64,000 bases of DNA from Alistipes sp. (GTDB lineage: Bacteria; Bacteroidota; Bacteroidia; Bacteroidales; Rikenellaceae). Both the position numbers and the translations under genes were made by a program. Under the pieces are notes generated by a model. It ran no database searches, was not told the DNA's origin, and worked only from the letters and a program-made list of their open reading frames with translations. Shown here piece after piece: positions 33,527 through 34,222 of this stretch; position 1 is the first letter of the stretch, and each line of letters starts with the position of its first letter. The DNA lies in NCBI GenBank assembly GCA_021202985.1, contig JAJQCA010000046.1:19217-83216 (forward strand), given 5' to 3'.

Positions 33527-33976
33527 TTAAGCGGGTGATTCCTCCGGGAGGAGCCCGTTATCGAGGGGACGTAAATGGAACCGGATGAAGTGCTCTAAGT
33601 TCCACTTTTGGGGTTCGGGGGTGAGGGTGAATTTTTTACCGTGGATTTCCGGGCGGTAAACGTCGGTGCGGTACATGTATTCCGGCTCGGCCGGCCGTTC
33701 GACGGAGAGCAGGTTATGGTCGGGATCGTAGAGGAAGCGTACGTACGGCCGGTCGCGGCCGTACTCGTAATTGCGCAACTTACCTTCGTAGACCCTGCGG
33801 CCGGAGTCGGTCAGGGCGGGCCGCACGTCGTAAAATTCCCAGATATACTCGCCCGGGTCGTAGAGTGACAGCAGCCGCCAGACGATACAGTCGCCGGATA
33901 TAAGGGTTACAACTACCTCGAATTTGCCTTCGAACGGGTTTGGAATAACGGAAGCGGGGTCTTTTCTCTTTGCCAT
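33527..33976 (-). CDS. Lipocalin-like orphan protein, family member A (149 aa)
   Basis: 'YIWEFYDVRPALTDSGRRVYEGKLRNYEYGRDRPYVRFLYDPDHNLLSVERPAEPEY' shares pattern with the ORFs at 36691 and 51713. Confidence 0.75.
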   Translation of the reverse strand: MAKRKDPASVIPNPFEGKFEVVVTLISGDCIVWRLLSLYDPGEYIWEFYDVRPALTDSGRRVYEGKLRNYEYGRDRPYVRFLYDPDHNLLSVERPAEPEYMYRTDVYRPEIHGKKFTLTPEPQKWNLEHFIRFHLRPLDNGLLPEESPA

Positions 33977-34004
33977 AGCCGGAAAGTTTTAATCACCCCA
34001 AAAT

Positions 34005-34205
34005 AAAAAGGGGCAATGGTTTGGACTCCCGAACAGAAGGTATGAGCTACCCCTAACAGAGAAAGTCGTCACCATGCCCCAGGTCATGCCGCGGCAAAAG
34101 CCGCGACATAACGAGGGCTGACAACTTTTATACCCTGTTAGAATCTCCTCAGAAAGGAGTGCTCATTTTTCTGTTCGGTATAAAGGTTGGTCGCCTTTAT
34201 AATAT
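34005..34205 (-). ncRNA. Structured leader RNA, copy 1, upstream of family member A
   Basis: Helices CTCCT/AGGAG, CTAACAG/CTGTTAG, AAGTTGTCA/TGACGACTT, ATGTCGCGGC/GCCGCGGCAT, TGAGC/GCTCA, CGAACAGAA/TTCTGTTCG, pseudoknot GGGGCATGG/CCATTGCCCC, then U-tract. Confidence 0.8.
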
Positions 34206-34214
34206 TTATCGGTA

Positions 34215-34222
34215 CAAAGATA
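34215..34222 (-). promoter_or_regulatory. -7 promoter element TATCTTTG upstream of leader RNA copy 1
   Basis: TAnnTTTG match about 10 nt upstream of the first conserved helix; -33 element weak. Confidence 0.5.

What the first reader, a model, noticed from the sequence alone, without database searches (positions are those of the whole stretch)
33974..34222. Candidate new structured leader RNA class, copy 1
The 200 nt between a TATCTTTG promoter element (34215-34222) and the start codon at 33976 fold by eye into nested helices: CGAACAGAA/TTCTGTTCG, TGAGC/GCTCA, CTCCT/AGGAG, CTAACAG/CTGTTAG, AAGTTGTCA/TGACGACTT, ATGTCGCGGC/GCCGCGGCAT. There is also a pseudoknot, GGGGCATGG (34072-34080) with CCATTGCCCC (34010-34019). 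The same architecture occurs at 37329-37535 and 51485-51685, with different bases in nearly every stem but pairing preserved. Unpaired stretches are conserved (ACCTTTATACC; GGTATA; CAGyCCTyGTTATG). I do not recognise it as any riboswitch or ribozyme class I know.
Basis: partly seen in the sequence, partly recalled or inferred. Interest (0 to 1): 0.93.

Follow-up and report, generated by a model that had tools for sequence, protein, structure and literature searches.

The report
New multi-copy switch-like bacterial RNA
The gut bacterium in this window and its relatives carry many copies of an undescribed, intricately folded ~200-nucleotide RNA with its own promoter and terminator, usually just ahead of small regulator or binding-protein genes; its base pairs are kept by compensating mutations, and it looks built to switch the next gene on or off.

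Summary
The three window copies fold far better than shuffles (z -9.0, -6.6, -5.8) and belong to a class with up to 15 divergent copies per genome in Rikenellaceae (Alistipes and relatives); shorter, mostly single-copy forms occur in other Bacteroidia families. A structure-blind alignment of 117 copies gives 16 significantly covarying pairs, all inside the proposed helices; a model-fitted one gives 30. Corrections: UUUAUACC pairs with GGUAUA (a second pseudoknot); the GGGCG/CGCCC pairing is the base of a long hairpin with a U-run (an intrinsic terminator); one strand of that hairpin also forms helix P5. P5 and terminator exclude each other and both coevolve, so this is a two-state fold. Rfam 15 has no match. 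Copies carry a Bacteroidetes -7 box and usually precede, mostly by 0-70 nt, genes under purifying selection: lipocalin-like proteins, XRE or AraC regulators, YspA or NYN proteins; several start codons directly follow the U-run. Best explanation: a cis-acting, riboswitch-like attenuator, ligand unknown. Rival: a stand-alone small RNA, since most Alistipes copies lack a downstream gene, many facing a divergent HEPN-nucleotidyltransferase gene. Function is inferred, not shown.

The parts
34215..34222 (-). Copy 1: Bacteroidetes-type -7 promoter box TATCTTTG
   Evidence: Sequence; TAnnTTTG lies within 80 nt upstream of 97 of 136 copies, against 3.2% of random 80-nt windows
34005..34201 (-). Copy 1: structured RNA (P0 hairpin to U-run)
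   Evidence: CM match G000:C9:53223-53412; fold z -9.0
34177..34184 (-). Copy 1: 5' strand of P-alpha (UUUAUACC), pairs with 34127-34134; can also pair upstream (P0)
   Evidence: Pair 24-71 of the reference copy significant in the structure-blind test; own-vs-cross p=9e-20; 86% paired, all 7 pairs with two-sided changes
34171..34177 (-). Copy 1: P1 5' strand (pairs with 34030-34036)
34161..34166 (-). Copy 1: P2 5' strand (pairs with 34042-34047, which lies in the loop of hairpin P8)
   Evidence: 99.8% paired, every pair with two-sided changes
34145..34159 (-). Copy 1: P3 hairpin
34134..34140 (-). Copy 1: P4 5' strand (pairs with 34055-34061)
   Evidence: 98% paired, 7 of 7 pairs with two-sided changes
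34120..34126 (-). Copy 1: strand 'a' of P5 (AGUUGUC), pairs with strand b 34064-34070
34086..34109 (-). Copy 1: P6 hairpin
34010..34080 (-). Copy 1: terminator hairpin T: GGGGCAUGG + strand b pairing with strand c + CCAUUGCCCC; mutually exclusive with P5
   Evidence: 3' part alone folds to -31.4 kcal/mol; b/c pair 131-172 significant; own-vs-cross p=9e-21; 92.8% and 90.6% paired
34005..34009 (-). Copy 1: U-run
   Evidence: Sequence; a U-run of 4 or more in the great majority of copies
33992..34000 (-). Copy 1: post-terminator element d (GGGGUGAU), complementary to the 3' strand of T
   Evidence: Own-vs-cross p=3e-5 over 131 copies, control null
33527..33976 (-). Copy 1: downstream ORF, 149 aa, NPFxG family, low-confidence lipocalin-like beta barrel
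   Evidence: dN/dS 0.18 against sister species; no Pfam, NCBIfam or PADLOC hit; 9-strand model, pLDDT 69, best PDB matches lipocalins at E about 3e-3
37541..37548 (-). Copy 2: -7 box TATCTTTG
   Evidence: Sequence
37331..37520 (-). Copy 2: structured RNA with terminator
   Evidence: CM match G000:C9:56547-56736; z -6.6
36691..37299 (-). Copy 2: downstream ORF, 202 aa, same family
   Evidence: 28% identity to copy 1 protein; dN/dS 0.31
51469..51476 (+). Copy 3: -7 box TATATTTG
   Evidence: Sequence
51489..51680 (+). Copy 3: structured RNA with terminator
   Evidence: CM match G000:C9:70705-70896; z -5.8
51713..52198 (+). Copy 3: downstream ORF, 161 aa, same family
   Evidence: 28% identity to copy 1 protein; dN/dS 0.33

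Best explanation
Each copy is a transcription unit that starts at its own TAnnTTTG promoter and makes a ~190-nt folded RNA. Domain I (P-alpha around P3) and domain II (terminator loop with hairpin P8) are joined by long-range helices P1, P2 and P4, with hairpin P6 between them. Strand b is shared: in one state it pairs with upstream strand a (P5, inside the long nested arm), in the other with downstream strand c, completing a hairpin followed by U's that ends transcription and covers the start region of the next gene. A signal, probably a small molecule or protein bound by the pseudoknotted core, would set the choice and so decide whether RNA polymerase and ribosomes reach the adjacent gene (lipocalin-like, XRE, AraC, YspA or NYN proteins). 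Shown computationally: the helices, their coevolution, the mutual exclusion by a shared strand, promoter, U-run, gene adjacency, selection on the ORFs. Inferred: that the terminator works, that switching happens, and that there is a ligand.
For: Both states coevolve: P5 (a/b) p=5e-12, b/c p=2e-17, full T p=9e-21, three control pairings null; T-state pairs 90.2% paired against 76.2% shuffled and 42-53% when slid; nested state 95.7% against 62.3%. The 3' part alone folds to -31 to -39 kcal/mol. TAnnTTTG upstream in 97 of 136 copies against 3.2% background. In 60 classified copies the ATG lies mostly 0-70 nt after the U-run and directly after it in at least 14, so those ORFs have no room for another promoter and must be expressed by read-through. 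ORFs are under purifying selection, dN/dS 0.05-0.33. RNA subclades follow the class of the downstream gene: 14 label changes against 24.5 shuffled, minimum 20. Out-of-family relatives keep P1, P2, P4, P-alpha and T and in one case sit directly before an XRE gene.
Against: Most Alistipes copies have no downstream coding gene. Tandem RNAs precede a single ORF (G000:C74). The downstream genes share no metabolite. No expression data. P-values treat related copies as independent apart from the use of distant crosses, and the covariation test is a home-made R-scape-like procedure. Thermodynamic models without pseudoknots cannot rank the two states.
Confidence: 0.5

Rival explanations
1. A stand-alone small RNA (possibly an RNA-protein particle) made from its own promoter and ended by its own terminator, acting in trans; adjacent genes are passengers or receive incidental read-through.
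For: Conserved copies in Alistipes without downstream coding genes; homology between copies often spans only about -30 to +200 around the RNA. Tandem copies before one ORF. Own promoter and terminator. Mostly single-copy relatives in other families.
Against: ORFs under purifying selection start directly after the U-run in many copies; RNA subclades track the downstream gene; the strand-sharing P5/T arrangement is typical of attenuators.
Confidence: 0.3
2. RNA half of an RNA-protein module, like a type III toxin-antitoxin or a defence unit, in which the RNA controls or inhibits a neighbouring protein and the terminator sets the RNA to protein ratio. The divergent HEPN-nucleotidyltransferase would be the partner in Alistipes.
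For: Sixteen copies in three genera sit divergently from a HEPN-NTase gene, always in the same orientation (15 full-length matches), and the NTase-RNA pair is duplicated as a ~1.3-kb unit. Order promoter-RNA-terminator-small protein elsewhere.
Against: Partner families are unrelated from copy to copy; no PADLOC hit for the small proteins; the RNA shows no tandem short repeats; most copies lack the HEPN-NTase.
Confidence: 0.12
3. A dispersed selfish or mobile cassette kept by its own spread.
For: Up to 15 copies per genome; duplicated units run from promoter to ORF end at unlinked sites in G071.
Against: No inverted ends or transposase seen; the five LIP-type copies compared have counterparts in the sister species; compensatory change maintains structure rather than decay; absent from the viral pattern scan and the plasmid search.
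Confidence: 0.05

Closest known systems
Transcription-attenuating riboswitches and leader RNAs (general kind)
   Same: 5' position, pseudoknotted core, strand shared between an antiterminator-like helix and an intrinsic terminator, start codon soon after the terminator
   Different: No match to any Rfam 15 class; ligand unknown; downstream genes are regulators and small orphan proteins, not a pathway; stand-alone copies exist
HTH-XRE RNA motif and other orphan cis-regulatory motifs found by comparative genomics (from memory)
   Same: Found upstream of XRE-type regulators (as recalled)
   Different: No Rfam match to any such family; a different bacterial group as recalled; architecture not compared directly
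Type III toxin-antitoxin loci (ToxIN kind)
   Same: Promoter, structured RNA, terminator, small protein ORF in that order
   Different: No short tandem repeats seen in the RNA; the protein beside it varies and shows no ToxN-like domain in Pfam
Candidate structured RNAs of human microbiomes (PMC8040213)
   Same: Same discovery approach; includes an Alistipes candidate, HMP2_39
   Different: The Alistipes candidate named in its text is 49 bp and upstream of ribosomal protein L20; its supplementary tables could not be searched, so an unnamed overlap is not excluded

Membership tests
Any Rfam 15 class | Match at or above the family's gathering score | tested here: not met
   with a lax threshold only chance matches
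Transcription-attenuating leader or riboswitch | Conserved structured domain supported by covariation | tested here: met
Transcription-attenuating leader or riboswitch | Intrinsic terminator mutually exclusive with another conserved helix | tested here: met
   Strand b shared by P5 and T; both coevolve; whether it terminates was not tested
Transcription-attenuating leader or riboswitch | Lies in the 5' leader of a gene | tested here: inconclusive
   Met in most non-Alistipes copies, not met in most Alistipes copies
Transcription-attenuating leader or riboswitch | Binds a ligand that changes expression | not testable with these tools
   Needs in-line probing or SHAPE and reporter assays
Type III toxin-antitoxin | Promoter, RNA, terminator, protein ORF in this order | tested here: met
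Type III toxin-antitoxin | Antitoxin RNA made of short tandem repeats | tested here: not met
   The RNA reads as a single non-repeated fold in the copies; no repeat-finder was run
Type III toxin-antitoxin | ToxN/AbiQ-like endoribonuclease next to the RNA | tested here: not met
   No Pfam, NCBIfam or PADLOC hit for the window's proteins; other neighbours are AraC, YspA, NYN and ORF6N proteins
Self-cleaving ribozyme | Site-specific self-cleavage | not testable with these tools
   No match to any ribozyme model in Rfam

The most novel reading that the evidence does not exclude
A Bacteroidia-wide RNA class, expanded to about 7-15 copies in some Rikenellaceae, that senses a shared cellular or phage-related signal through a double-pseudoknot core and gates a whole set of regulator and defence-like genes (XRE, AraC, YspA, NYN, HEPN-nucleotidyltransferase), either as a new riboswitch class or as the RNA partner of those proteins.
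Probability: 0.35. Interest if true: 0.92.

Novelty: new variant of a known kind. Interest (0 to 1): 0.8.

Why it matters
Large, pseudoknotted, multi-copy RNA classes are rare finds, and this one is supported by compensatory changes in every main helix and sits in common gut bacteria whose gene regulation is poorly known. It offers about 100 natural variants, a concrete two-state model that mutants can test, and a gene set that hints at what it senses. It also gives a first context to a set of orphan small proteins that had no annotation.

Tried and rejected
Known class: rejected (Rfam at gathering and lax thresholds). Phage or plasmid element: no viral match to the conserved pattern, no plasmid match to copy 1. 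Defence genes in PADLOC: none for the window's small proteins. An exact pattern for the short forms found nothing in 297 class genomes, so the breadth of the short form is unknown. L005 was first misread because the RNA there lies on the other strand; it is an ordinary copy upstream of a 149-aa family member. A weak antisense CM hit at L047:2613-2828 was judged spurious (it overlaps two true copies on the other strand) and left out, as were hits at L053:2417-2679 and L118:2196-2550. Literature searches for Rikenellaceae or Alistipes RNA motifs found nothing matching.

Full report
WHAT IS THERE. Copy 1 folds at -90.8 kcal/mol against -53.1 for shuffles (z -9.0); copies 2 and 3 give z -6.6 and -5.8. 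A covariance model from two copies found nine confident copies in this genome and relatives in 15 of 61 genomes searched, all in the same family. A better model gives up to 15 copies per genome (13 hits in this one, of which one antisense hit is spurious) and 50 of 200 genomes of the family. Named records are nearly all Alistipes and other Rikenellaceae (one lone record outside the group, L189, was not examined).

STRUCTURE. In 5' to 3' order: P0/P-alpha strand (UUUAUACC), P1, P2, P3 hairpin, P4, P-alpha strand (GGUAUA), strand a of P5, P6 hairpin, GGGCG, strand b, P4', hairpin P8 whose loop is P2', P1', strand c, CGCCC, U-run. Three tests support it. (i) A structure-blind MAFFT alignment of 117 non-redundant copies with a phylogeny-aware null of my own gave 16 significant pairs out of 18,915 tested, all in P1, P2, P4, P6 and P-alpha. 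(ii) An alignment-light test compares each copy's own two strands with strands of distant copies: every helix (P0, P-alpha, P1, P2, P4, P5, P6, P8, the GGGCG/CGCCC pairing, T) is better in its own copy (p from 5e-12 to 3e-21) while three control pairings are null. (iii) Counts on the 111-copy model alignment: nested helices 95.7% paired against 62.3% shuffled; P-alpha and the GGGCG/CGCCC helix, neither in the model, 89.8% against 83.8% shuffled and 39-63% when slid; the alternative terminator state 90.2% against 76.2%. The model-fitted alignment gives 30 significant pairs, including one in b/c that the model does not contain.

SWITCH. Strand b pairs with a (P5) or with c (terminator T). Both pairings coevolve, so the fold has two mutually exclusive states. 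The 3' part alone folds into a hairpin of -31 to -39 kcal/mol followed by U's. A short element d after the U-run is complementary to the 3' strand of T (p=3e-5, control null), which fits read-through transcripts. UUUAUACC likewise can pair upstream (P0) or downstream (P-alpha).

CONTEXT. 97 of 136 copies have TAnnTTTG within 80 nt upstream against 3.2% of random windows. Outside Alistipes the RNA is mostly followed by an ORF on the same strand: an orphan small-protein family in the window (NPFxG motif; low-confidence lipocalin-like model), XRE-like regulators (by sequence pattern; the one scanned in full has no Pfam hit), AraC regulators (PF12833), YspA (PF06908) and NYN plus cold-shock proteins. 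In 60 classified copies the ATG mostly lies 0-70 nt after the U-run, directly after it in at least 14; these genes have no room for a promoter of their own. The dN/dS of compared pairs is 0.05-0.33. RNA subclades follow the gene class more than shuffled labels allow (14 changes against 24.5, minimum 20). In Alistipes most copies have no coding gene downstream, but 16 copies in three genera lie divergently from a HEPN-nucleotidyltransferase gene (15 of them full-length matches), always in the same orientation. Tandem RNAs occur (three before one ORF in G000:C74; three in G098:C100).

BREADTH. Models R2 and R3 found 16 relatives, 151-221 nt, one confident hit per genome, in other families and orders of the class, with no Rfam match. 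They keep P1, P2, P4 and P5 with two-sided changes in 30 of 41 pairs, 90.7% paired against 54.3% shuffled (alignment fitted to the model), and P-alpha and T, which the model does not contain, in the own-versus-cross test. Neighbours include XRE and AraC regulators. Their true distribution is not settled: few candidates per genome were scored, and an exact pattern found none in 297 genomes.

INTERPRETATION. The most likely function is a cis-acting attenuator with a riboswitch-like layout (0.5). A stand-alone RNA is the main rival (0.3) because of the Alistipes copies. An RNA-protein module is less likely but is the most exciting alternative for the HEPN-nucleotidyltransferase loci. Nothing here shows transcription, termination, switching or a ligand.

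LIMITS.

Noticed in passing
L145 (about 150-1085 nt upstream of its RNA) and 15 other loci, opposite strand: A HEPN plus nucleotidyltransferase fusion protein of about 296-312 aa is duplicated together with the RNA as a ~1.3-kb unit in Alistipes; G013 has it with RNA and an XRE gene in one locus.
   Followed up: partly
G000:C74 (L003:1360-2445): Three tandem RNAs, the first truncated at its 5' end, before a single small ORF.
   Followed up: partly
G071 (L124-L138): A small 1.5-Mb genome with about 15 copies, most fused 1-4 nt before closely similar 72-aa ORFs at unlinked sites.
   Followed up: partly
window 33992-34000 and the same place in other copies: GGGCGCA-like element after the U-run, complementary to the terminator's 3' strand, kept even where no gene follows.
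   Followed up: partly
L046, L048, L052, L054, L058: AraC-type regulators with a cysteine-rich N-terminus (pattern like CxYYPxC) directly after the RNA.
   Followed up: no
L243, L246, L248: In three out-of-family genomes the RNA lies between a divergent small, partly HTH-like gene and a gene that reads like a SusC-type outer-membrane protein.
   Followed up: no
L144, L145, L147, L148, L150 downstream of the RNA: A second conserved, apparently non-coding stretch (TTTTATTAC.AAGGAATCTGGTAA followed by a GC-rich hairpin) recurs after the RNA in one genome.
   Followed up: no
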